Assembly (NCBI RefSeq): GCF_014200305.1
Contig: NZ_JACHBL010000001.1
Coordinates: forward strand, 2,356,001 to 2,420,000
Source: Neomicrococcus lactis
Lineage (GTDB): Bacteria; Actinomycetota; Actinomycetes; Actinomycetales; Micrococcaceae
Reading direction: 5' to 3'
Length of the DNA: 64,000 bases
In this document: piece after piece, positions 22,545 to 39,340 of the stretch
Position numbering within the stretch: the first letter of the stretch is position 1
How the letters are laid out: each line of letters opens with the position of its first letter
The notes under the pieces: model-generated
What the model was told of the DNA's origin: nothing
The model's input: only the letters and a program-made list of their open reading frames with translations
Database searches by the model: none
Program-made: the position numbers and the translations under genes

Positions 22545-22609
22545 CTTGTTTTTGGGGTTTTTGAAGTCTTTTCGGCGGAGGAGTAACGTATTTTCACGCC
22601 TAAAAGCGC

Positions 22610-22682: not shown

Positions 22683-23188
22683 CAGAATAAGAAGCCTAGC
22701 TTAATTGGCCACCTCGTGACCGTCCACCAGAAGCAGAGATAGGTCTGTCCGAACAGGAGCACTAGCGCCCCGAGTAAGAACCAGCCAACTGGCGTGCGGT
22801 ATGGCGTGAGGCGCGCTACGGACGAACTCCAGACTCTCCCTCGTGAGACGACGATGCGTGGAGTATTGGAGACGGTGCGGCGGAAAGCCAAGCGCATTTC
22901 CGCCCTGGCAAGCAGCACGAATTGCGTGCTGAGGCAATGTTGAATTTTTCTCTCATCAGGCAATTAGCGGAAACGTTGCGAAATTTCTATTCGTCAAAAA
23001 TGTGGATTATGAAAGAATCAGGGCTCGGATCGTAGCATCCCGGTCGAGCCGTCCGGCTCCCGCCTGCGACAGCACGACCCGCCCGAGCGGCGCGGCACCA
23101 AAGCAGTGTCTGAGCCTACCGGTAGCGTGGGGGATGGCACTTTGAACACAACACAAGACGCGCCCTTGGCGTGAAGGAGTACAACCCG
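22683..23188. other. Gene-poor left border of the defence island
   Basis: I see no convincing gene in these 506 bases. A minus-strand frame here (22616-22963) reads through the antisense of the tRNA. An AT-rich stretch at 22930-23025 is the best place for the promoter of the downstream operon, but I could not fit clear -35/-10 boxes. No integrase is present. Confidence 0.4.
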
Positions 23189-23272
23189 ATGAAGCGCAGG
23201 GAGGCACAATCACCCCGCCGCGGTAGCCACCAGGCGCTGCGGTCTCGTCGCTCTGCGCGGAGGGAGCGCTGA
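23189..23272 (+). CDS. 27-residue Arg-rich leader peptide
   Basis: A short ORF with AAGGAG at 23174-23178 and a 9-nt spacer before its ATG. It encodes 27 residues, ten of them Arg (starts MKRREAQSPRRG, ends RSARRER). Its TGA overlaps the ATG of the SNF2 helicase gene as TGATG, the same coupling seen inside the operon. Its function is unknown: it may only feed ribosomes to the helicase start, act as an attenuator, or make a nucleic-acid-binding peptide. Confidence 0.55.
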   Translation: MKRREAQSPRRGSHQALRSRRSARRER

Positions 23273-26172
23273 TGACCTCCCCTCTGACTGACTACCAAGC
23301 GAAGTATTACGCGCACGAGCTGCAGCGTAGTTACGCCAACGACCACGTCGGTAAGCTCGCTGGCCTGCTGTTCGACGCGCAGGTGGAGCCGAAGCCGCAC
23401 CAGATCGATGCGGCGCTATTCGCGTTGCAGACCCCGTTCCTGCCGGGCGTGATCCTGGCTGATGAGGTGGGCCTCGGGAAGACGATCGAGGCGGGCATCG
23501 TCATCTCGCAGTACTGGGCGGAGCGCCGTCGCAGCATCCTGATCGTTGCCCCGTCGAGTCTGCGGCAGCAGTGGCAGCAGGAGTTGTACGAGAAGTTCCT
23601 GATCCCGTCCGCCATCCTCGATCCGAAGTCGAAGGACTCGTTGCTTGCTGCAGCAGGCGGACGCTCGGCACAGGTGCTGATCTGTTCCTACGAGTTCGCG
23701 CTCCGCCACGAGACCTCGCTGCTCAAGGCGTGGGATCTCGTGGTCGCGGACGAGGCGCACCGGCTGCGCAACTTCTGGACGGGTAAGACCAAGGCCGCTG
23801 AGGCGGTGGCGCACATCGTCAAGGGTGCTTACAAGACGGTGCTGCTGACGGCGACGCCGCTGCAGAACAAGCTCGAGGAACTGTACGGGCTGGTGTCGAT
23901 CTTCGACCCGAACTACTTTTACTCGCTCGATGCGTTCCGCGAGCGGTACGTAAAGAACCGTGATCTGGGTGGCGATGACGACCTGGTGGAGCGTGTCGCG
24001 ACGGTCTCGAAGCGCACGCTGCGCCGCGACGCCGACAAGTACATTCACTTCACCAAGCGCCTGCCCCTGACGGTCGAGTTCACCCCATCACCCGATGAGG
24101 CGAGGCTCTACGAGCTGGTGAACGACTACCTGCAGCGTGATGAGTTGTTTGCCTTCGCGGGGAGTCAACGTCACCTCTCTGCTCTGATCATCCGTAAGCG
24201 CCTCGGCTCGTCGACCTATGCGGTCGCGAGCACGCTGGAGAACATCGCCAACCGTCTAGCGGACGAGGTTGCGGCCGGAAAGCGTCGTGATGGTCGTGGT
24301 GGTCTCGTGGCAGCTGACTTCGCGGTCGATGATGAGATCACCAGCGAGGAGTTGGAGGAAGCCGAGGAGATTGAGGGAACCGGCACCGGCTCGCGCCCCA
24401 AATCGTTGCCGATTGACGAATCGCTGCTCCAGGCGATGCGTGCTGAGGTTGCAGAGCTGCGTGAGTACGCCGCGCTTGCCCGCTCGATCACGGAGAACCA
24501 GAAGGCCGTCAAGCTCGGCGAGGCACTCGATCTTGGCTTCGAGCGGCTCCGCGAGCTAGGGGCTCCCCAAAAGGCCATCATCTTCACTGACTCGACCAAG
24601 ACGCAGGAGTACATCGCTCGATCGCTGCGTGAGGCTGGGCGCGGCGACGGACTCGTCTTGTTCAACGGCTCGAACAGCGGGCCTGAGCAGACTGCAATCT
24701 ACCAGGCATGGCTCAAGGCCAACCAGGACGGCGACCTGATCACCGGTATTGCTGCCGTGGATCGACGCAAGGCCCTCGTGGACTATTTCCGCGCCGAGGG
24801 CACGATCATGATCGCGACCGAGGCAGCGGCCGAAGGCATCAACCTGCAGTTCTGCTCCATGCTCGTCAACTACGACCTGCCTTGGAACCCCCAGCGCGTC
24901 GAGCAGCGCATCGGCCGCGTGCACCGCTTCGGACAGAAACACAACGTCGTCGTTGTGAACTTCTCGAACAAGGGCAACATCGCTGAGCAGCGCATCCTGG
25001 AACTGTTGACCAACAAGTTTCAGCTGTTCTCCAGCGTGTTCGGCGCAAGCGACGAAGTGCTCGGTGCGATCGAGGACGGGCTGGACTTCGAGAAGACGAT
25101 CAGCGACATCCTCACCCGCTGCCGAACCGCCGACGAGCTGGATGCCGCGTTCCGTGAACTCGAGGGGCAGTATGCGGGAGAGATCTCGCGGGAGATGGCC
25201 AGCGCCAAGGCGAAGGTCTTCGACAACCTCGACCCGCACGTCCAGGATCGTCTCAAGGCGTATGACACGCAGTCCGGCGAGGTGCTCAACAAGTTCGAAC
25301 GCCTGCTGCTCGCCGTAACCCGGCATGAGCTGAATAGATTCGCCACCTTCGAGGGCGACGGGCGCACCTTCGTTCTCAGCGAGTCACCCGTGCCGGATGT
25401 GCCGACCGGGCGCTACTTCTTCAAGTCGCTGCCGCTCGATAACGCTCACCAGTATCGCTACGCGAGCCCACTGGCCCAGTACGTCGTCGACGCTTCGAAG
25501 GCGCATGAGACACCAGCGCGGGAGCTGACCTTCTCGCTCGGGCAATCAGAGCGCGTCAGCAGCGCGATCCGGGCACTGGCGGGCACCAGCGGCGAGCTGA
25601 CCGTGAACCTCGCGACCTTCCGCATGAAGGCCCGTGACGAGGATGTCTCCGAGTCCTACATGCTGGCCGGTGCCCTGACCGATGACGGCCAGTGGCTCGA
25701 CGAGGAGTACGTCGCGGACGTCCTCGACCTGGCCTGTATCTCGGTCGGAGAGCAGCCCGTGGCGATCGACGAGTCCCGCTTCACGCCGCATCTTGATGCG
25801 CGACGGGCGGAGCTGGAGAAGGAAGTCCAGGGGCGCAACTCCCGCTACTACGACCAGCAGGAGGAGCTGCTCTATCGCAACCAGCAGGACCGCAAGGCCG
25901 AGCACGAGGGTGCCATCCGTGACTACCGGGCGAAGGAGAAGGGAGCCCGCAAGCTCTCTCGGCAGGCCGATGATCCGATGGAGCAGCTACGGCTCAAGAA
26001 GGAAGCCCGGAAGTGGGAGCAGCGTGCCGAGGAGGCTGACGAGGACTTCCGAGACGCGCGCAAGAAGCTCCGCGCGGAGGCCGACAAGTACCTTGAGCTG
26101 ATCGAGCAGTCGCTCCAGGGAACCCAGGAGACCGAGCACCTGTTCACGATTCGCTGGCGGATAGCCACATAG
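23272..26172 (+). CDS. SNF2/RapA-like DEAD-box helicase of the defence operon
   Basis: A 966-residue SF2 helicase-like ATPase. Motif I LADEVGLGKTIEAG (about 64-77), motif II VADEAHRLRN (about 158), motif III TATPLQN, and C-terminal motifs V/VI ATEAAAEGINLQ and RVEQRIGRVHRFGQ. The C-terminal third is not a known domain to me and ends in a charged coiled coil (about 870-960). Similar helicases accompany DISARM (DrmD) and other restriction-type defence loci. A GGAGGG ribosome site lies within the leader ORF. Mod follows 60 nt later. Confidence 0.88.
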   Translation: MTSPLTDYQAKYYAHELQRSYANDHVGKLAGLLFDAQVEPKPHQIDAALFALQTPFLPGVILADEVGLGKTIEAGIVISQYWAERRRSILIVAPSSLRQQWQQELYEKFLIPSAILDPKSKDSLLAAAGGRSAQVLICSYEFALRHETSLLKAWDLVVADEAHRLRNFWTGKTKAAEAVAHIVKGAYKTVLLTATPLQNKLEELYGLVSIFDPNYFYSLDAFRERYVKNRDLGGDDDLVERVATVSKRTLRRDADKYIHFTKRLPLTVEFTPSPDEARLYELVNDYLQRDELFAFAGSQRHLSALIIRKRLGSSTYAVASTLENIANRLADEVAAGKRRDGRGGLVAADFAVDDEITSEELEEAEEIEGTGTGSRPKSLPIDESLLQAMRAEVAELREYAALARSITENQKAVKLGEALDLGFERLRELGAPQKAIIFTDSTKTQEYIARSLREAGRGDGLVLFNGSNSGPEQTAIYQAWLKANQDGDLITGIAAVDRRKALVDYFRAEGTIMIATEAAAEGINLQFCSMLVNYDLPWNPQRVEQRIGRVHRFGQKHNVVVVNFSNKGNIAEQRILELLTNKFQLFSSVFGASDEVLGAIEDGLDFEKTISDILTRCRTADELDAAFRELEGQYAGEISREMASAKAKVFDNLDPHVQDRLKAYDTQSGEVLNKFERLLLAVTRHELNRFATFEGDGRTFVLSESPVPDVPTGRYFFKSLPLDNAHQYRYASPLAQYVVDASKAHETPARELTFSLGQSERVSSAIRALAGTSGELTVNLATFRMKARDEDVSESYMLAGALTDDGQWLDEEYVADVLDLACISVGEQPVAIDESRFTPHLDARRAELEKEVQGRNSRYYDQQEELLYRNQQDRKAEHEGAIRDYRAKEKGARKLSRQADDPMEQLRLKKEARKWEQRAEEADEDFRDARKKLRAEADKYLELIEQSLQGTQETEHLFTIRWRIAT

Positions 26173-26232
26173 ACCACGGGTCATTCACACACCCGACACA
26201 ACTTGTTGAAATCATGAAAGAGATTCACCCGA

Positions 26233-28152
26233 ATGACTGACGAGATCTACGAAACACCATCCACTACTCCGAACTTCCAGACCGAGCTGGCAGCGCAGCT
26301 TGCCGATCTGGTGCCCGAGGCCATCGCCGACGGCAAGGTGGATATCGAGAAGCTTGAAGAACTGCTCGACAGTGACGCCGCTGACGGCAGTGAGCGGTTC
26401 GGACTGTTCTGGCCCGGCAAGAAGCGTGCCCTCCGCGCTGCGCAGGAGCCGACCACGGCGACGCTGAAGCCCGACTTTGAGAACTCGAAGGACTGGGACA
26501 CGACACAGAACGTCTTCATCGAGGGCGACAACCTCGAAGTGCTCAAGATCCTACAAAAGCACTACCACGCCAAGATCAAGCTGATCTACATCGACCCTCC
26601 GTACAACACCGGCAAGGACTTCGTCTACCCAGACAACTACAAGGAGGGCCTCGACACTTACCTCGAGTGGACGCGCCAGGTCAACGAGGAAGGCAAGAAG
26701 GTCACGACCAATGCCGAGACCGAGGGACGCTACCACTCCAACTGGCTCAACATGATGTATCCGCGCCTCAAGCTGGCGCGGAACCTGCTCACCGATGACG
26801 GCGTCATCGCAGTATCGATTGACGAGAACGAAGTAGCCCAGTTGCGAAAACTGATGGACGAGGTCTTTGGCGAAAGCAGATTTCTGGGTCAACTTGCTGT
26901 CCAGAACAATCCGCGTGGGCGGGCGCAGGACAAGTACTTCGCTACCAACCATGAGTACGTCTTGCTCTACTCGCGGAGTGAGTTGGAACGAGGGGCCGTG
27001 TCGATCGCGAAGAGCCGCGAGCAATTGCAGGCCGAGTATGGCGAGGAGGATTCGAATGGGTTCTTCCGACTCCTCGGGCTGCGCAACTCCCACCGAGAGT
27101 TCGGACGCTTCAACCGGCCGAACCTTTTCTATCCGTTGTTCGTAGCGCCGGACGGTGAGGTATTCCTTGAAACTGCCCTTGGCCGCGAAGAGGTGCTTCC
27201 GCTCTGGAATGACGGCTTCGAAGGATGTTGGACTTGGGGCGCACCGAAGGCGGCTGCAGAACGCCACCTGCTTCACGGTCGCATGTCTGGCGGCAAGATG
27301 CAGATCTTTGTGAAGGATTATGCGGACGGTGCGAAGCGCAAGTTGAAGACGCTACTCGTCGAAAAAGAGTACTCCACGGACGCAGGCCAACGTGCATTCA
27401 GCTCGCTGTTCGACTCGAGTGACAAGCTCTTTCAGGCACCAAAGTCACCATACCTCCTGGCGGACTTGATCGAGGCATCGACCGCAGAAGGCGACATGGT
27501 ACTTGACTTCTTCGCCGGTTCGGGGAGTACGGCCCACGCGGCGTGGCTGCTCGCAGCGCGCGGTGGAGGCGAACGTCGCTGGATCGCCGTCCAACTCCCG
27601 GAGCCAACTCCGACGGATTCCGCCGCGAGAGCAGCGGGTTACAAGACTATCGCTGAGCTCAGTCGGGCTCGTATCGAGCGAGCGGGAACACAGATGGCTT
27701 TGGAAGCTGACGAGTCGATCGACTTGGGTTTCCGTTCCTACAAGTTGGCCGACACGAACTTCTCGAAGTGGCGCCTTTCAAGTGATGTTGAGGAAACCGT
27801 GCTCCAGCAGCACCTGCTTAGCCTTCGTGACAGTGCGACTGATGATGCGACTGCCGATGAGCTGCTCACTGAGATCCTCCTCAAGCAGGGTTACTCGTTG
27901 ACCGAGAACATCTCGGCTGCTGAGGTCGGTGGGCTTGACGTTCGCCTTGTGCGTGACCGTGATGGCGACGTTGCCGTGTTGGCGTACCTGAATGAGCATG
28001 TCAAGCCGACGCTTGAGCAGCTCCGCGCGCTTGTCGATGAGGAGCCGACGCGGATCATCGTGCTCGAGGATGCCTTCCAGGGCGATGACGAACTCAAGAC
28101 CAACCTGGCCCAGCTCGCGAAGAGCAAGGGTATTGAGATCTGGACGGCGTGA
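26233..28152 (+). CDS. mod: Type III restriction-modification DNA methyltransferase (Mod)
   Basis: A 639-residue beta-class N6-adenine methyltransferase. The catalytic motif IV is IDPPYNTGKDFVYPDNY (about 117), and the SAM-binding motif I is VLDFFAGSGSTAHAAW (about 423-438) located after it, which is the beta order. Between them lies the variable target-recognition region (about 215-370), which also differs in base usage from its surroundings, as expected of exchanged TRDs. The GTG start of res overlaps its stop. Mod sets the specificity and protects host DNA. Confidence 0.93.
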   Translation: MTDEIYETPSTTPNFQTELAAQLADLVPEAIADGKVDIEKLEELLDSDAADGSERFGLFWPGKKRALRAAQEPTTATLKPDFENSKDWDTTQNVFIEGDNLEVLKILQKHYHAKIKLIYIDPPYNTGKDFVYPDNYKEGLDTYLEWTRQVNEEGKKVTTNAETEGRYHSNWLNMMYPRLKLARNLLTDDGVIAVSIDENEVAQLRKLMDEVFGESRFLGQLAVQNNPRGRAQDKYFATNHEYVLLYSRSELERGAVSIAKSREQLQAEYGEEDSNGFFRLLGLRNSHREFGRFNRPNLFYPLFVAPDGEVFLETALGREEVLPLWNDGFEGCWTWGAPKAAAERHLLHGRMSGGKMQIFVKDYADGAKRKLKTLLVEKEYSTDAGQRAFSSLFDSSDKLFQAPKSPYLLADLIEASTAEGDMVLDFFAGSGSTAHAAWLLAARGGGERRWIAVQLPEPTPTDSAARAAGYKTIAELSRARIERAGTQMALEADESIDLGFRSYKLADTNFSKWRLSSDVEETVLQQHLLSLRDSATDDATADELLTEILLKQGYSLTENISAAEVGGLDVRLVRDRDGDVAVLAYLNEHVKPTLEQLRALVDEEPTRIIVLEDAFQGDDELKTNLAQLAKSKGIEIWTA

Positions 28153-31151
28153 GCATGAAAAACAACACAGCGAGCGGATCAGGGTTTCAGTTCGACGCCA
28201 GTCAGCCGTATCAGCTGGATGCAATCGCGTCCGTGGTCGACCTGTTCGATGGGCAGCCGAAGGATGCAGAGAAGCTGGTCACGACGTTGCGTGGTGCAGC
28301 GGTGCTGCCTGAGTCCGATCAGGCCGCGCTCGACATTGACCTCACCCAGGAGGTCGGAGCGGTCGGTAACAGCCTCGTGCTTGACCGCGACCTAATCCTC
28401 GCGAACCTACAGCGTGTGCAGGACCGGAACGGCCTCGAGGTCGGGCCGTCGCTTGCGGGCGACGCGCTCGATTTCGATATCGAGATGGAGACCGGTACGG
28501 GCAAGACGTATGTCTACCTGCGCACGATCTTCGATCTGGCCGTCCGGTACAACTTCACGAAGTTCGTGATTCTCGTGCCGAGCGTGGCGATTCGCGAGGG
28601 TGTCAGCACGAGCATCCGGCTCATGCGCGAGCACTTCGAGAACCTCTACAAGCCGCAGGGCATCACCTTCGACGCCTCGATCTACAGCGGCAAGAGCGCC
28701 GAGGAGGTGCAGTCGTTCGCGACCTCGACGAACGTGCAGATCCTCATCATGACGATCGACTCGATCCGTGGCAACGCGAACACCCGCATCATCCACCAGA
28801 CGCGCGACAAGCTGAACGGCCTGCGCCCGATTGACTACCTGAAGGCGACCCACCCGGTCGTGATCATGGACGAGCCGCAGAACATGGAGTCGCAGCTGTC
28901 GCAGTCGGCGGTCGGTGAACTCGATCCGGTCTTCACTCTGCGCTACAGCGCGACTCACAAGAAGCAGCGCAACGTCGTCTACCGGCTTGACCCCGTTGAC
29001 GCTCACGACCTCGGACTGGTGAAGCAGATTGTTGTGGCCGAGGTGGCCCAGCAGGGTGCCGACGCGACGCCCTATATCAAGCTGGTCGAGGTGCGGCGTG
29101 AACCATCGTGGTCGGCCCGCCTGGAGCTGTCCTGCCGTAAGGCCGATGGCTCGCTTGAACGGCGCATCGTGAGCGTGAAGCAGCATCAGGAGCTGTCGGA
29201 TGCGCGCTTGACGAACAACCCGATCTACGAGGGTTGGCGTATCAACGAGATGAGCATCGAGCCCGCGTACGTTGACCTCACCTCGCACGGCTTCCTTTAT
29301 GAGGGTGAGAGCATCGGTGCCTCGGCCGGCGCGATCTACAAGGAGATGATCCGCGAGACCGTTCGCGAGCACCTGCGTAAGGAGTCGATGCTGCGCGCCA
29401 AGGGCATCAAGGTGCTCAGCCTCTTCTTCGTCGACAAGGTCGCCAGCTACCTGGGCGACGGCACGAACAACGACGACGCGAACGGTGACTTCGTGCAGTG
29501 GTTCGATGAGGTCTTTGCCGAGGAACGCGCGAAGTCGGCGCGCTACCAGGAGTTGCTGCCGCAGGCGCCGAGCGAGCTTCGCCGGGCGTACTTCTCCCAG
29601 ATCAAGCGCGGCAAGACGATGACCTTTCAGGACTCGTCTGGCACGACGAAGGCCGATGACGACGCCTATGAGCTGATCATGCAGCAGAAGGAACGGCTGC
29701 TCGACGAGAACGAGCCTGTCCGGTTCATCTTCAGCCACTCTGCCCTGCGCGAGGGCTGGGACAACCCGAACGTCTTCCAGATTTGTACCCTGCGCGAGAT
29801 GGGCGCGGAGACAGAGCGCCGCCAGACCCTCGGCCGCGGACTCCGCCTCCCTGTTGCGAAGACGAAGGTGGGCTACGCCCGTGTCGCTGACCGGGGCATT
29901 GCGACGCTGACGGTCGTGGCGAACGAGTCGTATACGAAGTTCGCGGACGCGCTCCAGCGTGAGTACAAGGACGCTGGTGTCGAGATCGGTCGGGTGCGTA
30001 GGGCTGAGTTCTCGAAGATCCCGCTACAGGACGAGAACGGCGCGCTCACCGACGACCAGTTCGGCTACCAGCGCTCCGTCCTCGTGTGGGAGCACCTCAA
30101 GGACAAGGGCTTCATCGACAAGGACGGCGCGGTCACCCCGAAGTTTCAGCCGAAGCAGCTCGGCTTCGATCTCGCCCTTCCGGTCGACTTTGTCTGGGCC
30201 GAGCCGATCATCATCGAGCTGGTTGAGCGCGCCAACATCGGCAAGTACGTCAAACCCGTCAGCAAACGTCAACCGCGCGTGCTCAACAAGCAGCTCTACT
30301 CGAATCCGGAGTTCGAGGAGTTCTGGGAGACGATCAGTCAGAAGACCACCTACCGCGTCAAGGTTGGTCGCGACCAGCTGATCGAGAACGCTGTCCGTGC
30401 GATACGGGAAGCGCCGCAGATCGATGCGCTGCGTATCCAGGTGACCCGTGCCGGAGTCAGGGTGCTTCGAGGCGGCGCCAAGGGTGAAGAGCTCGGCACC
30501 CGCTCGGCGGATCTCAAGGGCAGCTACGACCTGCCCGACATCATCACGGAACTGCAGGAGGCCACTTCCCTTACCCGCAAGACCATTGTCGACATCCTGA
30601 TCGGCAGTGGCCGGCTGGGCGAGTTCATCGGCAACCCGAACGACTTCATCGCGATGACCAAGCGTGCCCTCCAGGACGAGCTGGCGAAGATCGTGGTCGA
30701 CGGTATCCAGTACGAGCGGATCGCAGGCTCGGTCTACGAGCTGCGCGAGTTGCAGCGGGACGGCGAGGAGGAGAAGGAGCGCTTCCTCGACCAGATGTAC
30801 AAGGTGCAGCACACCCAGAAGACCGACTTCGACTACGTCATCTTCGACTCGGATGTCGAGCGCCAATTCGCGGAGCTGCTCGACTCTCGCGAGGACATCA
30901 AACTGTTCATGAAGCTGCCCGCAAAGTTCAAGATCGACACCCCAGTCGGCCCGTACAACCCCGACTGGGCGATTATCAAGCAGGAGGACGGCGAAGACCG
31001 GATCTACATGATCCGTGAGACGAAGAGCACGCTCGACGACTCGAAACTCCGACCGACCGAGCTTGCGAAGATCAAGTCTGCCAAGCGCCACTTCGAGGCC
31101 ATCGGTATCGATGACTACGCACGAGCAGTCCCGGGAGCGTGGAAGCTATGA
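28149..31151 (+). CDS. res: Type III restriction enzyme helicase/nuclease subunit (Res)
   Basis: A 1000-residue Res subunit (998 if ATG 28155 is used). Walker A lies in EMETGTGKTYVYLRTIF (about 114), DEAD-like box in VVIMDEPQNME (about 240), C-terminal helicase motif near SALREGWDNPNVFQICTLRE and QTLGRGLRLPV. The C-terminal PD-(D/E)XK nuclease is intact: YNPDWAI then IRETKS (about 937-960). With Mod it would cut DNA after translocation between unmodified sites. It overlaps mod by 4 nt and qatA by 4 nt. Confidence 0.93.
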   Translation: MSMKNNTASGSGFQFDASQPYQLDAIASVVDLFDGQPKDAEKLVTTLRGAAVLPESDQAALDIDLTQEVGAVGNSLVLDRDLILANLQRVQDRNGLEVGPSLAGDALDFDIEMETGTGKTYVYLRTIFDLAVRYNFTKFVILVPSVAIREGVSTSIRLMREHFENLYKPQGITFDASIYSGKSAEEVQSFATSTNVQILIMTIDSIRGNANTRIIHQTRDKLNGLRPIDYLKATHPVVIMDEPQNMESQLSQSAVGELDPVFTLRYSATHKKQRNVVYRLDPVDAHDLGLVKQIVVAEVAQQGADATPYIKLVEVRREPSWSARLELSCRKADGSLERRIVSVKQHQELSDARLTNNPIYEGWRINEMSIEPAYVDLTSHGFLYEGESIGASAGAIYKEMIRETVREHLRKESMLRAKGIKVLSLFFVDKVASYLGDGTNNDDANGDFVQWFDEVFAEERAKSARYQELLPQAPSELRRAYFSQIKRGKTMTFQDSSGTTKADDDAYELIMQQKERLLDENEPVRFIFSHSALREGWDNPNVFQICTLREMGAETERRQTLGRGLRLPVAKTKVGYARVADRGIATLTVVANESYTKFADALQREYKDAGVEIGRVRRAEFSKIPLQDENGALTDDQFGYQRSVLVWEHLKDKGFIDKDGAVTPKFQPKQLGFDLALPVDFVWAEPIIIELVERANIGKYVKPVSKRQPRVLNKQLYSNPEFEEFWETISQKTTYRVKVGRDQLIENAVRAIREAPQIDALRIQVTRAGVRVLRGGAKGEELGTRSADLKGSYDLPDIITELQEATSLTRKTIVDILIGSGRLGEFIGNPNDFIAMTKRALQDELAKIVVDGIQYERIAGSVYELRELQRDGEEEKERFLDQMYKVQHTQKTDFDYVIFDSDVERQFAELLDSREDIKLFMKLPAKFKIDTPVGPYNPDWAIIKQEDGEDRIYMIRETKSTLDDSKLRPTELAKIKSAKRHFEAIGIDDYARAVPGAWKL

Positions 31152-33031
31152 CCTCCTCCTACCCGCTCTGGTCAGATGAGCCTGCAACCCAGGATCTGCT
31201 GGCCTTTCGCGCGGTCGCAGAGACGGCTGCGGATGCGATCTTCGATGACGGACTCGATCCCGTGGCGATCGGTCTCTCCGGTGCTTGGGGTAGCGGCAAG
31301 ACGAGCGTCCTCGAGCTGATCAAGTCCGAGATCAAGGAGCGCTCCTCGGGTAGCGAGCGTGAGGTGCTGGTCATCCCGACGCAGCCCTGGCTCTACGACC
31401 CGGCAGTTGGCCCCAAGGAGAGCCTCATCGCCGAGGTGCTGGGTGCGCTCAGCAAGGAGTTCAAAGAGACGGATCCGGTTGGCCAGGCTGGCCTCGAAGC
31501 ATTCAAGAAGCTCGTCCGCAAAGTGAACTGGTCGAAGGCGGTCAAGATGGCCGCCAAGACCGCTATCACGATGCAACTGCCGAACATCGATGACGTCTTC
31601 GGCCTAGTTAGCGACGAGCCCGACAGTCTCGACAGCGAGAAAGGCATGGCTGCCTTCCGCGAGGAGTTCGAGGCGTTGTTGGCCGATCCTGCACTGGCCC
31701 ACCTGTCACGTGTGGTTGTGCTCGTCGATGATCTCGATCGCTGCCTGCCGGACACCGTGGTCGAGACCCTTGAGGCGATCCGGCTGTTTCTTTCGGCCAG
31801 GGGAATGTCCTTCGTCATCGCAGCCGACGAGGATCGCGTGGCGGAAGCTATTCAGCAGAAGTTCAAGACGGCTGCACCAAAGAACGAGGACGAGGATCCA
31901 GCGAAGCTCTACCTGCATAAGATCGTCCAGACGACGATCCCGCTCCCTGCGCTGAGTCGATTCGACACCGAGGCATATCTCTTCCTGCTGCTTGCGAAAG
32001 CGGAGATGGATAACGATGAGGAGGTATATACAGCCTTTGTCGCCAAGTGCGACGAGCTCCGCATCGGTGGAGGCAGTCTGGACGATCTTGAGATCGAGGA
32101 CGGCACTCCACTGGCTGAGCATCTGGTCACAGCCACACGCCTGACACCGATCCTCTACGAGAAGTTCCACGGCAACCCGCGACGGATCAAACGGTTCCTA
32201 AACGATCTGAATGTGCGCCAGGCGGTTGCTCGGCGTCGTGGGTTCGAGCTGGAGGCGGACGAGGTTGCGAAGCTCATGGTGCTGGAGCGGATCCTCACCG
32301 ATGACTTCGAGACGGTACTCGGCTGGCTTGCGTCTAACCAGCTGCGCGACAAGCTCGACGCTCTCGATGTTGCCGCCAACGGCCGCGTTGAGGAGGTCGA
32401 AGAGACAACACCCGAGGCAACCGGGGATGATGGGCAGGACGAGGGGCGCGCTAAGAAGAAGGCGGTCACTCCGGTACCGGAACAGGAGTCAGCCCGCGAT
32501 GATGACTTCAGCGACACTCTTCGGCGCTGGGCGAAGCTCCCGCCCGCACTCGACGCCTCTGCTATCTCGGGGTACCTCTATCTGGCAGCGTCGTTCGCCA
32601 AGATCGAGGTCATTGACGCAGGGCTACCTGAGCGTCTCCGTGACCTGGCGGTCGCGCTGACGTCGAGCCTGAAGCTCGACCGAGCGGGTGTCACCGATGA
32701 GACTCTGAGACTGCTGCCCGAGAGCGACGCCCAGATTCTGGTTGGACATCTCGGACGCCGTACTCGCGACCAGCCCGCTCTGCAGAAGTTCACGATCGAG
32801 AGCCTGCTTCGCCTTGCGGCCCAGCAGCCGACAACCCAGCCGAACGTGGTGGCGGCGCTACGAGGTCTCCCTGCGGGAGACGTTGAGCCAGCAACGATTA
32901 TCAAGCTTCGACCCCTGGATCAGGCGATCTATCGGCCGGTGCTTGAGACCTGGCGGGCTGGGTCAGACGACCAGCAGCTCCAGCAGTCTGTGGGCATCGT
33001 CGAGACGGCGTGGAGCAGCAATGGGAACTAG
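31148..33031 (+). CDS. qatA: QatA: KAP-family P-loop ATPase
   Basis: A 627-residue KAP-type NTPase. Walker A GLSGAWGSGKTSVLELI (about 38-52) and Walker B VVVLVDDLDRCLPD (about 190) are intact. ATG at 31148 was chosen because it overlaps the res stop as ATGA; an upstream GTG at 31139 is possible. The KAP ATPase is the first of the four Qat genes (Gao et al. 2020 set: ATPase, QatB, QueC-like, TatD-like). Its stop lies 9 nt inside qatB. A linker rich in Glu/Asp/Lys occurs at about 415-455. Confidence 0.9.
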   Translation: MTSSYPLWSDEPATQDLLAFRAVAETAADAIFDDGLDPVAIGLSGAWGSGKTSVLELIKSEIKERSSGSEREVLVIPTQPWLYDPAVGPKESLIAEVLGALSKEFKETDPVGQAGLEAFKKLVRKVNWSKAVKMAAKTAITMQLPNIDDVFGLVSDEPDSLDSEKGMAAFREEFEALLADPALAHLSRVVVLVDDLDRCLPDTVVETLEAIRLFLSARGMSFVIAADEDRVAEAIQQKFKTAAPKNEDEDPAKLYLHKIVQTTIPLPALSRFDTEAYLFLLLAKAEMDNDEEVYTAFVAKCDELRIGGGSLDDLEIEDGTPLAEHLVTATRLTPILYEKFHGNPRRIKRFLNDLNVRQAVARRRGFELEADEVAKLMVLERILTDDFETVLGWLASNQLRDKLDALDVAANGRVEEVEETTPEATGDDGQDEGRAKKKAVTPVPEQESARDDDFSDTLRRWAKLPPALDASAISGYLYLAASFAKIEVIDAGLPERLRDLAVALTSSLKLDRAGVTDETLRLLPESDAQILVGHLGRRTRDQPALQKFTIESLLRLAAQQPTTQPNVVAALRGLPAGDVEPATIIKLRPLDQAIYRPVLETWRAGSDDQQLQQSVGIVETAWSSNGN

Positions 33032-33860
33032 CGGTTCATTCGGCGGCAGCGGTGGCAAGGACGCAGGTGACCTCCGCGACAACATTGCGGCGTGGCTTGA
33101 TACTGCAGGTGGGCCAGGTGGTGCCGATGGTGCTGACACGAGCGGCGCGGATGGAGCCGACCACTCTTCCGATCCGCCGCGTCCCGGAACGCCGGGGCAG
33201 CCGCGAGTAGACCTCGGGCCGGCGCTTCGCGTACTGCTCAACTCGCGCGGCCGCGGTGGGCGCAGCGACGGCCCGGGCGGTGGCGGCGGCGGTTCCCGAG
33301 GTGGAGGCGGTGGCCGCTCATCGGGTGGCGCCACGCGCTCCGTCGGCCGGGTCTCTCGGGCAGCTGGGCGAGCTGGGCGGCTTGCGCTTGCCTACTCGTC
33401 GGGCAACCGGGAGGCCCTGCGCGAAGCTGGCCTCAACTATGACGAGCTGCAGTCGCTTGGTGACCCTGTCGCTATCGGGCTCAAGATCATCGAGACTGCC
33501 TTCGAGGCCCAGGCCGACAGCACACTTGCGGATGCTGAGGAGCGCGACATCGTCGCGACCGTCGTTGAGTGGATCCTGGAGCAGCCTGCCGATCATCCGC
33601 CAACGCCGGAGGATGTCGTCAGGAAGTCGATCGAGACGACCATCGCGGAGACCGCGCTGACCGAGGTGTCAGCGACGATCTACGCCAAGGACGCCAGCTT
33701 CGAGAAGCGCCGTAGCCTGGAGCGTCAGATCCGTGATGTGGCAGCGGAATACGCGGTCCAGGCAACCCTGAACCCGGCAGGCGCGACCGAGCAGCAGATG
33801 GCGCAGGCCATCGAGAACGGCATCCGCGACATCGGGCAAATCTTCGGAGTCACGTCATGA
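33021..33860 (+). CDS. qatB: QatB
   Basis: A 279-residue protein. The N-terminal start MGTSGSFGGSGG and a Gly/Ser/Arg low-complexity stretch (about 75-105) are followed by a helical domain (about 110-279) with no catalytic motif I recognise. Its place between KAP ATPase and QueC-like genes identifies it as QatB, essential but biochemically obscure in known Qat systems. ATG 33021 overlaps the end of qatA by 11 nt; the stop overlaps qatC as ATGA. Confidence 0.85.
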   Translation: MGTSGSFGGSGGKDAGDLRDNIAAWLDTAGGPGGADGADTSGADGADHSSDPPRPGTPGQPRVDLGPALRVLLNSRGRGGRSDGPGGGGGGSRGGGGGRSSGGATRSVGRVSRAAGRAGRLALAYSSGNREALREAGLNYDELQSLGDPVAIGLKIIETAFEAQADSTLADAEERDIVATVVEWILEQPADHPPTPEDVVRKSIETTIAETALTEVSATIYAKDASFEKRRSLERQIRDVAAEYAVQATLNPAGATEQQMAQAIENGIRDIGQIFGVTS

Positions 33861-35155
33861 GTCGGCTCCTACTCACCCTCTCCGAGGCCACCGCTGACGC
33901 TGCCCTGCTGGACGGCAACTTCGACGAGGTGTTCCTCTGGACACACAACGGCCGGACGACCTTCACCGGAGGCGTTGATCCGCACCTGGCTGACCTTGGC
34001 GTGGTGAATGTGCGTAACGTCGACCTTGTCCGAATCGCTCTGGGAGTACTCGCCACCGATCGCTCCGTACTTCGAGAGGGCGGTGGCTCGAGCTGGAACG
34101 CGAGGGAGTTCGAGCTCACCGTGGAGGTGGGCGATCCCCACGTCTGGGCATCACACGCCGAGCAGCTGGCCAGCACAGTCGGCTTCCTATCGGGCGACCA
34201 CTGGTCGTTCAGTTTCACACAGGCGCCTGAAGCCGGTGAGGCCGGGCTTCCAATCGAGGAGCAGCACCACGACCGGACGGTACTCCTCAGCGGTGGTGCC
34301 GACTCGGCTGCCGGTGCACTCCTTTCAGCGGTTGATCTGGGCAAGGACCGCTCGCAATCGCTGGTGTCGCAGTACAGCTCAACGGCGATCTCCCCGGTAC
34401 AGCAGCGCATCGTTGGCGCCATCACTGAACTAGCGCCCGGCATCCGGCAGGTACACCGTCAGTTCCATCTTCATCGCGGCTCGAAGCGTCTGGGCGGCTC
34501 ATCGTTCCGCAGCGAGACATCGACTCGATCGCGCTCGCTGCTGTTCCTGGCGCTGGGACTCGCCGTCGCTGAACGCGCTGGCTCGACGCTCTGGATCCCC
34601 GAGAACGGCTTTGCATCGCTCAACCCGCCACTTGGCCCTGACCGTCGGGGCAGCTTGTCGACGCACACGACCCATCCGCGCTTCCTGCGCGAACTGTCCG
34701 CCTTGATGCAGAGCGTCGGCGGACATAGCATTATCGAGAATCCCTTCGAGGCCCTCACGAAGGGCGAGATGTTCCGCCGGGTAGCGGACGCGGTCGGAGT
34801 CGACGCCGCCTCGACCTACCTCAGTAACACCAACTCCTGCTCGCACACGGACGCGCGCTACAGCGGTGCTCCCGTGGGATCATCTTGCGGCGTGTGCTTC
34901 GGCTGCCTCGTTCGCCGTGCGGCCTTCGTAGCTTCTGGCGTTCCCGACATGACCACCTATCTCGTGAACGATCAGATCGGTGGCTACAACACGTTTGTCC
35001 GGCAAAAGTCGATCGTTGAGCCTCTCCGGGACTTCGTCGATCGAGGTATTCGTGCACGCGATGTGATGGCTATGTCGCTCCCCGAGGGCTACTCAGCGCA
35101 GGATGCCCTTGCCCTGTCTCAGCGGGGAGCCGACGAACTTCGAGGGCTCTTCTGA
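33857..35155 (+). CDS. qatC: QatC: QueC-like PP-loop protein
   Basis: A 432-residue protein. The ATP pyrophosphatase loop reads VLLSGGADSAAGALLS (about 140). Four C-terminal cysteines in CSHTDARYSG and SSCGVCFGCLVRR (about 325-353) form the QueC-like zinc site. QueC makes the 7-deazaguanine nitrile; in Qat the homologue is thought to modify a protein or nucleotide target instead. The N-terminal 130 residues are an extension not found in housekeeping QueC. TGATG overlap with qatD. Confidence 0.92.
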   Translation: MSRLLLTLSEATADAALLDGNFDEVFLWTHNGRTTFTGGVDPHLADLGVVNVRNVDLVRIALGVLATDRSVLREGGGSSWNAREFELTVEVGDPHVWASHAEQLASTVGFLSGDHWSFSFTQAPEAGEAGLPIEEQHHDRTVLLSGGADSAAGALLSAVDLGKDRSQSLVSQYSSTAISPVQQRIVGAITELAPGIRQVHRQFHLHRGSKRLGGSSFRSETSTRSRSLLFLALGLAVAERAGSTLWIPENGFASLNPPLGPDRRGSLSTHTTHPRFLRELSALMQSVGGHSIIENPFEALTKGEMFRRVADAVGVDAASTYLSNTNSCSHTDARYSGAPVGSSCGVCFGCLVRRAAFVASGVPDMTTYLVNDQIGGYNTFVRQKSIVEPLRDFVDRGIRARDVMAMSLPEGYSAQDALALSQRGADELRGLF

Positions 35156-35943
35156 TGACGCCCCAGCTTCCCCCACTTGATCTGCACGCGCATATCAGTC
35201 CAAAGACGCGCCCAGCCGATCTTGAGCGGCTCGGTGCGGTCGTGTTCGCGGCCACCAGGTCTCTGGATGAGTACGAGTCCGTCAGGGACCGTCATGACCA
35301 GGTCACGATCTGGGGTGTGGGCTGTCATCCGGGCGTGGTGCAGGCGCAGTGGGAGTTTGACGCCGAGAGGTTCGTCTCGCTGATCGCTTCGGCGGCCTTT
35401 GTGAGTGAGATCGGGCTGGATCGACGCTCCAAGCTGCCGCTCGACGAGCAGGAGCTAGTTCTCTCCTCGATCCTTGGCGCGCTGCAGCGCACGCCGCGCA
35501 TCGCTTCCATCCATAGCTCCGGCGCGCCAGGGCGCGTGCTCGATGCCCTGGAACGAACTCCAATCAGGGGGGCAGTTCTCCACTGGTGGCGCGGCGACAA
35601 GGCGCAAACGCGCCGAGCAATCGAGCTCGGCTGCTGGTTCTCAATCAACGCGGCGGGTATGAATTACCCGGACGATGTAGCGCTGATCCCGCCTGAACGG
35701 ATTCTCACTGAGACCGATCACCCTTCTGGCGACCGAACCTCGGCGGTGCCGCGACAGCCGGGAGCTGTCGCTGATGTTGAGAAGGCTCTTGGGGAGGTCT
35801 ACAAGATCGGTGTGCGAGCCGTGCGTGCACAGGTCTGGACGAACCTGGTTAGCCTTGTGGACGAGACAAACGTTGTCGGTCTTCTTCCGGCTGCCGTACA
35901 GCGGATGATCGCGTTCGCGCGGACGAACGAGGCGACGCGATGA
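35155..35943 (+). CDS. qatD: QatD: TatD-like metal-dependent hydrolase
   Basis: A 262-residue TatD-type TIM-barrel nuclease. Metal ligands are in place: LDLHAHIS (HxH), VSEIGLDRR (Glu), IASIHSSGA (His), AVLHWWRGD (His) and ILTETDHPSGDR (Asp). It completes the Qat quartet. Its stop overlaps the following HEPN gene by 4 nt (ATGA), so that gene belongs to the same translation chain. Confidence 0.92.
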   Translation: MTPQLPPLDLHAHISPKTRPADLERLGAVVFAATRSLDEYESVRDRHDQVTIWGVGCHPGVVQAQWEFDAERFVSLIASAAFVSEIGLDRRSKLPLDEQELVLSSILGALQRTPRIASIHSSGAPGRVLDALERTPIRGAVLHWWRGDKAQTRRAIELGCWFSINAAGMNYPDDVALIPPERILTETDHPSGDRTSAVPRQPGAVADVEKALGEVYKIGVRAVRAQVWTNLVSLVDETNVVGLLPAAVQRMIAFARTNEATR

Positions 35944-37397
35944 AACCTGCCAAGGAGACTAAGGCTGTCAAGCTCCCGTTCGAGACGGGCGAATACCTCA
36001 TCACGTGGCAAGTGCCGGATCGTAAGGGTGGACGCGCCGGGGTCCCGGGGCTCCTCACTGTCGAGCAAGGGAAATATCCGAGCGGCATTCTCTTCGGTGA
36101 CCTGCCGATCGAGTGGGTGTCCGAGGGTGCCACAGGCGTTGCCTCGTTCCCGCAGCGGCACCGCTTTGATACCCTCACGGGCCGACTCTCGAGTGGCGCT
36201 TACGTCGCCCTGATGAATGGAGAACTCAGCTACAGCTTCCCTGGAAACGGTCGGGCGATCGGTGCATTTGCCGTCCTGTCCCTCGATAGTTTCGACTCTT
36301 CAGAGCAACGGAAGTACGCCTCGATTGAGCTTCAGATCGAGGGGTTGGAGTCGGTTGCAGGAGTAGCCCCGATCTCGCACGTGAACATGCCGATGAAAGC
36401 CGGCGATGAGCCAGTCTGGACGGCCACAGTCGACAAGGAAGCGAAGCTCGTCTGGGATACGGGCGGACAGTCGATGACGTTCAGCTACGACTATTCCGTT
36501 CGTGCACTCGACGGCTACGAGTTTCGGATGGCCTTCGGCCCTGTCCTGCGCCTGACCTCGGGGGAACCTCTGACGGTTGCCGATTGGTGGCTTGAGCGGG
36601 TTCGACCCCTTCGACAGCTCATTTCGCTCCTGACAGGTTCCCCGCGCGAGATTCGGTACCTACTTGCGGTGGTCAATGAAGCCGCGCCCCGCTCGCACCG
36701 CGACCAGGTGTTCGGCTGGGATATCACCCACGCACCCGTGAACTCGACGCGCGCGGCAGTTGAGGAGATCCGTTCAGCGGTCAGTCTGGCGGGCGACAAT
36801 CTGAGCCTGCTCGACCTGTTGCACGCCTGGCAGCGCCAGGTAGCTGCCAGGCATCCGCTCTTTGAGACCTACGGTGCGATGGCGACGGCCAGTGACCAGC
36901 ACCCCCGCTCACGCTTCCTTCTTCTGTTGCAGGCACTCGAAGGATCGTATGGCTTTGAGAATCGAGCCAAACACGAAGCGGACAGGGAGAATTTCGGGGT
37001 AAAGCGAGAGGGCGTGATCGCACGAGTACAGGAATTGTTGGACAAGGCAGATCTCTCCTTCATCAACAAGCACCTCCGCAAGGAAGCGCAGCAGGGTCTC
37101 GATTCAGCGCTTGCCGATCTGCTGAAGCGGTTGCCCGATGAGATCCCCGACGGACTCGCGAAAAGCGAACTCGTCAAGATCGTCCGCGCGCAGCACAACG
37201 GCAAGGACACGCTGCCACTCCAAACTGCGCTCACGAGGGCACGAAACACGCTGTCCCATGGCTCAGGATCGTTCGATCCCGAGCACCTGGCAGTCGTGGC
37301 TGACATTCTCGAGCGGGCGGTGCGTTCTGAAGCCATCCGATTGCTTGGTGCTCCGCTCGGCGCGCAGGAACGCGCAGCCAAGAATCAGCCGGGCTGA
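35940..37397 (+). CDS. apeA: ApeA-like HEPN-domain protein (candidate RNase)
   Basis: A 485-residue protein. The N-terminal half resembles the ApeA N-terminal domain (beta-rich, about 10-210). The C-terminal helical HEPN domain (about 300-475) carries the RX4-6H active-site motif as RNTLSH (about 437-442). ApeA on its own is a known abortive-infection gene that halts phage-infected cells, probably through RNA cleavage. Here it is the last gene of the operon, overlapping qatD as ATGA. ApeA identity is from motif and memory, not alignment. Confidence 0.8.
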   Translation: MKPAKETKAVKLPFETGEYLITWQVPDRKGGRAGVPGLLTVEQGKYPSGILFGDLPIEWVSEGATGVASFPQRHRFDTLTGRLSSGAYVALMNGELSYSFPGNGRAIGAFAVLSLDSFDSSEQRKYASIELQIEGLESVAGVAPISHVNMPMKAGDEPVWTATVDKEAKLVWDTGGQSMTFSYDYSVRALDGYEFRMAFGPVLRLTSGEPLTVADWWLERVRPLRQLISLLTGSPREIRYLLAVVNEAAPRSHRDQVFGWDITHAPVNSTRAAVEEIRSAVSLAGDNLSLLDLLHAWQRQVAARHPLFETYGAMATASDQHPRSRFLLLLQALEGSYGFENRAKHEADRENFGVKREGVIARVQELLDKADLSFINKHLRKEAQQGLDSALADLLKRLPDEIPDGLAKSELVKIVRAQHNGKDTLPLQTALTRARNTLSHGSGSFDPEHLAVVADILERAVRSEAIRLLGAPLGAQERAAKNQPG

Positions 37398-37499
37398 GGT
37401 CCTGATGATGATGATGACTTATTGGAGGGCCATCTCCCGACTGCCCAGTTCCCTCACCTGCTCAGCGCACCGAACACTTCGCTTATGAACAATCGATCA

Positions 37500-37946
37500 T
37501 CATCGGCTGCATCCATGCCAATCTCTCGTGCGGACCCCTCGGCTCCTGAGCTTGTTGAGGACAGTCATGGCGTCGAAGCCGAGGCGGCCTCCGGCTTTTT
37601 GAAGCGAGAGGCTCTGGATGTAGAGGCGGATCATCTCCTTCACCTGGTCCGCCTACGGCGGATTGCGGCGCAAGGTTACGCCTGCCCGATTGAGAACTAC
37701 ACTCGCGGTGACTCGATGGATGCCGTGCTCGCCCGCGATTTCATAGGCGATCCGACCTGCGCGGTAGCCTTCAAGGATCTTTTCTTCGATATCAGCATGG
37801 AGCTTCTTCCCCAAACATGCGGCACGTGGCGGCTGGCTCGACCGCTTCAGTGCCATGCTTCCGATCTGGCCACGGGCTTCTGCTACTAGACTATCGACTT
37901 TGCGGACTGTCTCGTTTTGATTGCAGTAAGTCCGTAGGAGCCCCAC
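37500..37946 (-). pseudogene. Recombinase-type HTH protein, interrupted by TAG
   Basis: The minus strand encodes two tandem resolvase-like HTH modules: EGYRAGRIAYEIAGEHGIHR followed by VTASVVLNRAGVTLRR, then an in-frame TAG (37653-37655), then VKEMIRLYIQSLSLQKAGGR and GFDAMTVLNKLRSRGVRTRD. Reading continues in the same frame to a stop at 37500. The doublet architecture matches orphan HTH proteins derived from serine recombinases. The stop codon makes it a pseudogene, marking the right end of the defence island. No catalytic domain is seen. Confidence 0.7.
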
Positions 37947-39299: not shown

Positions 39300-39340
39300 C
39301 AGATCTGAGGCCGATAAAACTCCGCCTAGGGCGTTAGGGC

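What the first reader, a model, noticed from the sequence alone, without database searches (positions are those of the whole stretch)
23189..37397. One 14-kb operon joins a SNF2-type III RM module, a complete Qat system and ApeA
All genes are on + and linked by TGATG, GTGA or ATGA overlaps (leader-SNF2, mod-res, res-qatA, qatB-qatC, qatC-qatD, qatD-apeA); only SNF2-mod has a 60-bp gap. Qat and ApeA are known as separate defences; translational coupling of both with a type III enzyme suggests staged control: restriction first, Qat, then RNase-mediated arrest. I do not know of this set described as one unit.
Basis: partly seen in the sequence, partly recalled or inferred. Interest (0 to 1): 0.9.

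Follow-up and report, generated by a model that had tools for sequence, protein, structure and literature searches.

The report
Layered restriction–Qat–ApeA phage-defence operon
Eight tightly packed bacterial genes combine a DNA-cutting defence, the Qat antiviral system and a probable RNA-cutting "suicide" enzyme; in relatives the same parts are swapped in and out, with restriction genes in front and suicide genes behind, which suggests that Qat often serves as a backup to restriction enzymes.

Summary
Window 23189-37397 holds a 27-aa leader ORF and snf2-mod-res-qatA-qatB-qatC-qatD-apeA on one strand. Six of seven gene junctions overlap by 1-11 nt; snf2-mod has 60 nt.

The whole set recurs in Agromyces (1 of 57 external Qat loci), with homology starting at snf2 and ending at apeA. 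dN/dS is 0.05-0.15 for every gene except mod, whose recognition region is swapped.

It is not a fixed system. snf2-mod-res, qatABCD, qatABCD-apeA and apeA each occur without the rest. One 5' head (ribosome-binding site, usually a short leader ORF) precedes three different restriction modules in five operons, and one 87-bp tail follows four.

Across 82 Qat loci, restriction-type genes lie within 3.3 kb upstream on the same strand in 22 of 75 and downstream in 1 of 75. A Pfam repeat without the window agrees. In two Bacteroidota loci qatABCD appears nested inside type I hsd genes, as PrrC is.

I read it as a modular restriction-first, suicide-last operon. Staged control is plausible but untested. 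New variant of a known kind.

The parts
22719..23188 (+). conserved 5' head of the operon, ending in a GGAG ribosome-binding-like site
   Evidence: 72-73% identical over 22719-23182 in front of other restriction modules in L087 and L018; shorter matches in L016 (23089-23193) and G421 (23119-23275)
23189..23272 (+). arginine-rich 27-aa leader ORF (MKRREAQSPRRGSHQALRSRRSARRER), stop overlapping the snf2 start
   Evidence: leader ORFs of 31, 28 and 28 aa, also overlapping the first restriction gene, in G421, L016 and L087; in L018 mod itself starts there; no such leader seen in Agromyces L115
23272..26172 (+). snf2: SNF2-family helicase/translocase (DrmD-like)
   Evidence: PF00176, PF00271; PADLOC DrmD 591 bits; below the NCBIfam DrmD cut-off, 589 of 950; GLGKT, DEAH, QRIGRVHR
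26233..28152 (+). mod: type III DNA methyltransferase
   Evidence: MTase_III 551 bits, PF01555; DPPY before FAGSG; central part diverged against L020
28149..31151 (+). res: type III restriction subunit
   Evidence: REase_III 895 bits, RE_endonuc and ResIII; GTGKT, DEPQ, ETK
31148..33031 (+). qatA: KAP-family NTPase; start ATG overlaps the res stop
   Evidence: PF07693 161 bits, PADLOC QatA 274, NCBIfam QatA 317 (cut-off 600)
33021..33860 (+). qatB: MGTS start, glycine-rich tail, helical domain
   Evidence: position; MGTS; glycine at position 2 in the 58 of 62 loci whose QatB N-terminus could be read, MGTS in 44 of them; no profile match; AF2 helical, pLDDT 64.5
33857..35155 (+). qatC: QueC-like protein
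   Evidence: PADLOC QatC 224 bits, PF06508; PDB QatC 9zee E 2.1e-43; SGGADS, CGVCFGC, STHTTH
35155..35943 (+). qatD: TatD-family nuclease
   Evidence: PF01026 85.6 bits, PADLOC QatD 118; HAH, SEIG, TDHP
35940..37397 (+). apeA: ApeA N-terminal domain plus HEPN-type RNTLSH motif
   Evidence: PF18862 45.6 bits over cut-off; R435/H440/G441 invariant in 8 aligned sequences, window included
37860..37946 (.). conserved 87-bp tail element, 463 nt after apeA
   Evidence: 86% in L017, 83% in L087, 77% over 71 bp in L016, each behind its qat or apeA genes; not related to the head

Best explanation
This is a compound, modular anti-phage operon: a fixed 5' head, a restriction module (SNF2 translocase + type III Mod/Res), a Qat module and a 3' abortive RNase (ApeA), written as overlapping genes and passed on as a cassette whose inner modules are exchanged between conserved ends. 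Proposed action: Mod/Res, with the SNF2 protein as a DNA translocase or remodeller (inferred), recognises and cuts unmethylated phage DNA. [quoted passage not shown] ApeA cuts RNA and stops the cell when the earlier layers fail. Shown here: architecture, intact motifs, purifying selection, recurrence of the whole set, exchange of modules at the junctions, and a repeated restriction-in-front / toxin-behind polarity around Qat. Inferred: a single transcript, translational coupling, QatB modification, ApeA RNase activity. Least certain: that failure of restriction releases the later layers, as in PrrC-EcoprrI.
For: Junction geometry and motifs. Whole set in Agromyces: snf2, res, qatA and qatB 86-93% nt identical while the rpoB region is 75%. 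dN/dS 0.05-0.15 for snf2, res and qatABCD-apeA where compared with L020, L017 and L039. Mod recognition region (alignment columns about 201-520) 15-63% identical in 40-column blocks against 85-100% on either side. Homology edges at module junctions: L017 and L039 share qatABCD-apeA, L016 and L018 qatABCD, G010 apeA. The same head precedes snf2-mod-res (window, G421), one type III pair (L016, L087) and another type III-like pair (L018); 4 of these 5 have a coupled 27-31-aa leader ORF; the same tail follows 4 operons. Restriction-type genes same-strand upstream of qat 22 of 75, downstream 1 of 75; Pfam repeat without the window: ResIII in 10 of 85 upstream genes; among 70 downstream genes the families hit more than once are Fic 3, ApeA_NTD1 3, HTH_17 2, AAA_19 2. 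Qat apparently nested in hsd genes (L181, L186), behind BREX genes (L189) and behind a IIG-like enzyme (L183). Published: QatBC and the MGTS glycine are essential for Qat defence (PMC13279940); PrrC precedent and HEPN genes in R-M operons (PMC3710099, passages); cultures with QatABCD collapse at high phage load (PMC10889362, passages), consistent with a late-acting layer.
Against: A cloned qatABCD works on its own (PMC13279940), and 53 of 75 Qat loci here show no restriction gene upstream by these queries. apeA occurs alone, 78% identical, in G010 with no qat hit nearby. The full set is seen in only two genomes; the second copy has its res in two frames (mutation or sequencing error), and its qatC, qatD and apeA are 76-79% nt identical, hardly above the rpoB region. 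apeA of L017 is in three frames. L039 keeps qatABCD-apeA without restriction hits in front. All three ApeA_NTD1 counts downstream are probably from the window's own clade (L017, L020, L039). No expression, binding or phage data. ApeA rests on its N-terminal domain and motif; the HEPN_Apea profile did not match and the fold search was uninformative.
Confidence: 0.6

Rival explanations
1. Ordinary defence-island packing: three independent systems share a promoter because they were captured together at a hot spot with conserved ends, with no functional dependence. Overlaps are the normal compact style of these genomes.
For: Each module occurs without the others; 53 of 75 Qat loci lack restriction genes upstream by these queries; shared head and tail around different contents also fit a capture hot spot; defence genes cluster in general (PMC10121019, passages seen).
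Against: Packing alone predicts no side bias, yet restriction-type genes lie upstream on the same strand in 22 loci and downstream in 1. Within 100 nt upstream of snf2 only 1 of 13 loci has a same-strand ORF of 80 aa or more (82 aa), while 7 of 11 have a same-strand gene within 100 nt after res.
Confidence: 0.33
2. PrrC-like guard: Res/SNF2 or the Qat proteins physically hold ApeA (or QatBC) inactive, and phage anti-restriction proteins release it.
For: Arrangement like that of PrrC in an hsd operon (PMC3710099, passages); Qat apparently nested within hsd genes in two Bacteroidota.
Against: The restriction partner differs in type between close Qat relatives, which argues against one specific protein contact; ApeA and Qat also occur without it.
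Confidence: 0.22
3. Selfish stabilisation: the restriction module plus toxin make the cassette hard to lose, and phage defence is secondary.
For: Restriction-modification and HEPN toxins are known addiction modules (recalled); the set occurs in distant hosts.
Against: No antitoxin-like partner gene was recognised beside apeA in the window, and apeA without qat persists in G010, L009 and L010.
Confidence: 0.05

Closest known systems
QatABCD (Qat anti-phage system)
   Same: Gene order, KAP ATPase, MGTS-starting QatB, QueC-like QatC with SGGxDS and CxxCxxC, TatD nuclease; PDB QatC 9zee and 9vlk matched.
   Different: Below NCBIfam equivalog cut-offs; here joined by overlap to restriction genes in front and apeA behind.
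Type III restriction-modification (Mod/Res)
   Same: Profiles, motif order and diverged recognition region.
   Different: Preceded by a DrmD-like SNF2 gene as a snf2-mod-res module (complete in this order in 11 of 18 fetched loci).
PrrC-EcoprrI and HEPN genes in R-M operons (Anantharaman et al. 2013, PMC3710099; passages seen)
   Same: Restriction operon carrying a suicidal RNase; the paper lists ApeA as embedded in R-M operons in epsilonproteobacteria and proposes multi-pronged defence.
   Different: Here Qat lies between restriction and HEPN; a search of that main text found no QueC, TatD or KAP.
BREX/BR operons with backup suicidal effectors (PMC12839542; passages seen)
   Same: Modification-based system with appended OLD, HEPN and similar effectors.
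   Different: The word Qat is not in that main text; type III rather than BREX in the window.
DISARM class 1
   Same: The SNF2 protein resembles DrmD.
   Different: Below the DrmD cut-offs; no separate drmA/B/C gene among the ten proteins scanned.

Membership tests
Qat | qatA KAP ATPase, qatC QueC-like and qatD TatD in order | tested here: met
   scores under NCBIfam equivalog cut-offs
Qat | QatB with an N-terminal glycine motif (MGTS) | tested here: met
   MGTS in the window. Of 62 loci, 43 have MGTS by pattern, 1 more by tblastn, 14 have another glycine start (MGTK, MGHK, MGSK, VGTK), 4 could not be read. MGTS in 21 of 21 rows is not independent: those rows were picked by that pattern
Qat | QatB sequence profile or fold match | tested here: inconclusive
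   no profile hit, no PDB QatB hit; AF2 pLDDT 64.5, no Foldseek match at E<=0.001
Qat | anti-phage activity | not testable with these tools
   needs plaque assays
Type III RM | Mod with DPPY, recognition region, FxGxG; Res with helicase and endonuclease domains | tested here: met
ApeA | ApeA N-terminal domain | tested here: met
   PF18862 45.6 bits, cut-off 25.5
ApeA | HEPN catalytic RxxxxH near the C-terminus | tested here: met
   RNTLSH; R435 and H440 invariant in 8 aligned sequences
ApeA | HEPN_Apea profile (PF18739) or HEPN fold | tested here: inconclusive
   no PF18739 hit at 0.01; PADLOC Cas13-ApeA weak, E 0.0023; model pLDDT 60, beta N-terminus and helical C-terminus, no fold match
DISARM | DrmD above curated cut-off | tested here: not met
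   589 and 254 bits against 950 and 610
DISARM | drmA, drmB, drmC present | tested here: not met
   no separate gene among ten proteins of 23272-41217; a DrmA-profile hit (121 bits) falls on the SNF2 protein itself; genes left of 23272 were not scanned
PrrC-like guarded restriction operon | toxin gene in or overlapping the restriction operon | tested here: met
   continuous run of overlapping genes res to apeA
PrrC-like guarded restriction operon | toxin held silent by, and released from, the restriction complex | not testable with these tools
   needs binding and anti-restriction assays

The most novel reading that the evidence does not exclude
Qat is, in much of its range, a restriction-linked sentinel. 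It sits just 3' of, or inside, modification-based systems of several kinds (types I and III, a IIG-like enzyme, BREX, and an unclassified restriction pair) in Actinomycetota, Bacteroidota and Alphaproteobacteria because its unknown trigger is phage interference with restriction, and 3' toxins such as ApeA, LA2681-HEPN or Fic are its terminal effectors. In actinobacteria it travels in a cassette with constant head and tail into which restriction modules are swapped.
Probability: 0.25. Interest if true: 0.85.

Novelty: new variant of a known kind. Interest (0 to 1): 0.63.

Why it matters
[quoted passage not shown] If Qat is repeatedly joined behind restriction enzymes, the first triggers to test are anti-restriction proteins and restriction products, and the right test context is the whole operon rather than Qat alone. 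The snf2-mod-res module with exchangeable 3' cargo, and the constant head and tail, are also search handles: unknown genes lying between them are candidates for new backup defences.

Tried and rejected
Leader peptide as an essential control element of all such operons: present in 4 of 5 operons that share the head, but no leader was seen in front of snf2 in Agromyces.

DISARM: rejected on the DrmD cut-offs and missing drmABC.

Fold evidence: two AlphaFold jobs gave low-confidence models (pLDDT 60 and 64.5), and Foldseek gave no match at E<=0.001; not used.

ApeA-Qat as an obligate pair: rejected. ApeA homologues in G010, G404, G561 and plasmid loci L009 and L010 have no qat hit nearby.

McrBC label: I first named the pair in front of Qat on the Sulfitobacter and Roseivivax plasmids McrBC. 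The records say only 'ATP-binding protein' and 'restriction endonuclease', and neither protein of the Sulfitobacter pair matched a PDB sequence convincingly, so it is reported as an unclassified restriction pair. The query labels IV/McrB carry that guess.

The first tallies of restriction genes used queries partly taken from genes upstream of qat, which biases them; loci are also related and some are near-duplicates. I repeated the test with Pfam on both sides without the window. That repeat used 63 of 81 loci: 11 near-duplicate or short loci were dropped by name, 5 had a short flank and 2 had no qatD hit. It lists only the first 25 families (of 64 upstream, 48 downstream), so single hits may be hidden. 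Against the polarity, outside the 3.3-kb limit: a hit to the restriction-pair ATPase 4.3 kb downstream in L031 and hsdR downstream in L186; opposite strand: L012 upstream, L100 downstream.

Promoter scan: uninformative. The Bacteroidota survey matched 12 of 395 genomes; 11 were fetched and the 12th was already held as L066.

Novelty searches (open PMC papers only). No title or abstract start listed there joins Qat with restriction genes. Nine papers hold both 'qatABCD' and 'restriction-modification': in two of them I saw the Qat passages; the other seven were seen only in the listing. The original Qat discovery paper was not read. PMC13279940: abstract, Results part 1 of 2, Discussion and passages; PMC13329287, PMC3710099, PMC12839542, PMC10121019, PMC10889362, PMC12824646: passages.

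Full report
What is there. The window is G000:C1:2356001-2420000 of a 2.70-Mb genome. Its family also contains G126, whose contig has the same length (3,309,128) as the named Glutamicibacter creatinolyticus record, so the host is very probably a member of the Micrococcaceae (inference). Eight + strand genes run from 23272 to 37397 behind a 27-aa leader ORF at 23189. Six of the seven gene-gene junctions overlap (-4, -4, -11, -4, -1, -4) and snf2-mod has 60 nt. The likely starts of qatA (31148) and qatB (33021) differ from the longest ORFs. Profile searches support the names. Motifs are intact: SNF2 Walker A, DEAH and motif VI; Mod DPPY and FxGxG; Res GTGKT, DEPQ and ETK; QatA Walker A and DDLDR; QatB MGTS; QatC SGGADS, CxxCxxC and STHTTH; QatD HxH; ApeA RNTLSH. 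That the QatC residues correspond to those tested in PMC13279940 is my reading by spacing, not an alignment.

Edges. A same-genus genome (G027) is 98% identical to the window over 38086-39859, the end of the stretch fetched, and has no match to the window before 38086 at that place. A tRNA-Ala gene with CGC anticodon (22610-22683) lies about 500 nt before the leader; an 88%-identical tRNA-Ala(CGC) lies beside the Qat operon of L016, on the other side. No direct repeat was found within 22400-23200.

Is the whole unit conserved? A scan of one genome per species with a QatC alignment gave 57 loci. Searching them with the eight proteins: 1 of 57 (L020, Agromyces agglutinans) has all eight genes in order; 4 of 57 (L017, L020, L032, L039) have apeA directly after qatD; in the others no apeA was found after qatD at E 1e-5. 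The Agromyces snf2 start was recovered through its own genome. DNA homology runs from window 23281 to 37381, with a gap in mod (about 26801-27719), and ends at both sides of the gene block. The rpoB region of the two genomes is 75% identical over its best 3.1 kb; snf2, res, qatA and qatB are 86-93% and qatC, qatD and apeA 76-79%, which points to horizontal transfer with later piecewise recombination (dS 0.22 for qatB, 1.03 for qatC). dN/dS is 0.05-0.15 for every gene but mod (0.38), where compared with L020 (all genes; res over 834 codons), L017 and L039 (qat and apeA; L017 apeA over 372 codons). The mod exception is its recognition region: alignment blocks from about column 201 to 520 are 15-63% identical and the blocks on either side 85-100%, as expected of a type III enzyme changing specificity.

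Modules. Homology edges fall at junctions: L017 and L039 share from the qatA start to the apeA end (31149/31153 to 37384/37404); L016 and L018 share qatABCD; G010 shares apeA (35964-37411). In the window's QatC clade of six (support 100/98) the genes in front of qatA are snf2-mod-res (window, L020), a second type III pair at about 34-36% identity (L016, with a res remnant in L017), a third, type III-like pair (L018), and no restriction hit (L039). ApeA of L032 is 37% identical and its Qat lies elsewhere in the tree, so the Qat-ApeA link is old or arose twice. ApeA homologues without a qat hit nearby: G010 at 78%, G404, G561, and plasmids of Mycobacterium and Rhodococcus. apeA matches were found in 3 of 295 genomes of the family, the window's own included and one of them only 51 residues long, and in 8 of 396 of the order.

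Constant ends. The 5' region 22719-23182 is 72-73% identical in front of the mod-res genes of L087 and L018; shorter parts match in front of mod in L016 and in front of snf2 in G421. The aligned region ends in a GGAG site followed by a start codon. In four of these five operons that start codon opens a leader ORF of 27, 31, 28 and 28 aa whose stop overlaps the first restriction gene; in L018 it opens mod itself. An 87-bp tail (37860-37946) recurs behind the operons of L017 (86%), L087 (83%) and L016 (77% over 71 bp), 0.5-1.5 kb after the last defence gene. Among all loci held, the Agromyces ones gave no hit to head or tail at E 1e-5. So in five operons, the window's among them, one head serves three kinds of restriction module, and L087 carries a very divergent Qat (QatA 43%) between the same ends.

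The restriction module by itself. SNF2 at E<=1e-120 is in 19 of 396 genomes of the order, the window's included. Of the 18 others fetched, 11 have snf2, mod and res complete in that order (in L136 about 3.2 kb lies between snf2 and mod), 2 are cut off after mod by a contig end, 2 have res in front of snf2, and 3 are distant (about 40%). No qat hit was found in any of the 18 stretches. Downstream of res in the 11: OLD in L133 and L139 and an AAA_13/PDC-S06 protein in L144, all overlapping res; Tmn in L140 (19 nt); DRT4 in L145 (40 nt); an unknown gene then SIR2 in L134 (76 nt); unscanned genes in L143 (75 nt); PDC-S06 and a TrwC/RecD-like helicase in L141 (151 nt); a Hhe/PDC-S37 helicase-nuclease further on in L135; opposite-strand genes in L136 and L138. 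Upstream of snf2, 1 of 13 loci has a same-strand ORF within 100 nt, of 82 aa. The end of res is thus repeatedly followed by different second-line defences, and qatABCD-apeA is one of them.

Qat by itself. With 82 Qat loci (57 from the scan, the window and two family genomes, 11 plasmid loci, 11 Bacteroidota), restriction or modification genes lie on the same strand within 3.3 kb upstream in 22 of the 75 loci with at least 1 kb of upstream sequence (three are remnants: L017, L030, L059) and downstream in 1 of 75 (L181, probably the same hsd operon); opposite strand 1 and 1. A sign test on 22 against 1 gives 6e-6, but loci are related and the queries were partly drawn from upstream genes. The repeat without that bias (Pfam on up to two nearest same-strand genes on each side, 63 loci, window left out): ResIII in 10 of 85 upstream genes, HSDR_N in 5, Methylase_S in 3; among 70 downstream genes the families hit more than once are Fic (3), ApeA_NTD1 (3, probably all from the window's own clade), HTH_17 (2) and AAA_19 (2), with single hits to LA2681-HEPN, Abi_C and RhuM (first 25 families shown). 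Systems involved: type III; type I (L021, L022, L025, L026, L037, L042, L068); an annotated ATPase/restriction-endonuclease pair on Sulfitobacter and Roseivivax plasmids, the first followed by an LA2681-HEPN gene; a IIG-like enzyme (L183); BREX PglZ-BrxL (L189). In L186 the order is hsdM, 289 aa, hsdS, qatABCD, Fic, RhuM, an AAA_15 ATPase, 161 aa, hsdR; in L181 hsdR, 227 aa, hsdS, qatABCD, unknown genes, hsdM, all on one strand; that each set is one system is inferred. On the QatC tree, counting only rows with a restriction label, type I needs at least 4 and type III at least 3 changes. Qat loci without restriction hits nearby are common (for example L011, L097, L101, L102, L103).

Reading. 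The evidence supports a design rule rather than a private three-part system: restriction in front, Qat in the middle, toxin last, with exchange at the joints between constant ends. HEPN genes, ApeA included, in R-M operons and the PrrC precedent were described in 2013 (PMC3710099, passages), and backup suicidal effectors in BREX operons in 2026 (PMC12839542, passages). What I did not find in print, within the searches named, is Qat as part of such operons. The Qat mechanism (QatBC sufficient against some phages; QatA and QatD affect the range) comes from PMC13279940; cultures carrying QatABCD collapse at high phage load (PMC10889362, passages). The staged-control model fits the order but is untested; a plain capture hot spot with one promoter remains a serious rival.

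Noticed in passing
L181 and L186 (Bacteroidota): qatABCD lies between type I hsd genes; in L186 it is followed by Fic/DOC, RhuM and an AAA_15 ATPase gene before hsdR.
   Followed up: partly
window 37860-37946; L017 14398-14484; L016 13595-13665; L087: An 87-bp element of unknown nature recurs 0.5-1.5 kb behind Qat operons; it could be an attachment site, a terminator or a mobile-element end.
   Followed up: partly
window 22610-22683; L016 14834-14907: Similar tRNA-Ala(CGC) genes stand beside two of these operons, on opposite sides; possible integration site.
   Followed up: no
L021 6448-7176, L037 6633-7352, L068 6588-7295: A YgjP-like metallopeptidase gene (Pfam for L021; by similarity for the others) sits between hsdR and qatA in three type I operons; role unknown.
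   Followed up: no
L031 2-7252: An 836-aa protein without Pfam match, an ApeA (ApeA_NTD1 + HEPN_Apea) and a DUF499-HEPN_Swt1 protein lie in one run in front of qatA: a different ApeA-carrying system upstream of Qat.
   Followed up: no
L058 12093-13118, L068 12117-13142: 341-aa proteins overlapping the end of qatD have no Pfam match at 0.001: candidate unknown effectors in the apeA position.
   Followed up: no
window 37422-37889, minus strand: Broken reading frames in the variable strip between apeA and the conserved flank at 38086; one reads like a helix-turn-helix/recombinase remnant (recalled resemblance, not searched).
   Followed up: no
L027: Record titled Stenotrophomonas maltophilia, but the assembly is 2.7 Mb and its QatC groups with Microbacteriaceae: probably a mislabelled assembly.
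   Followed up: no
L038: A Patescibacteria MAG contig carries a QatC next to that of Agromyces L037 in the tree; contamination or recent transfer.
   Followed up: no
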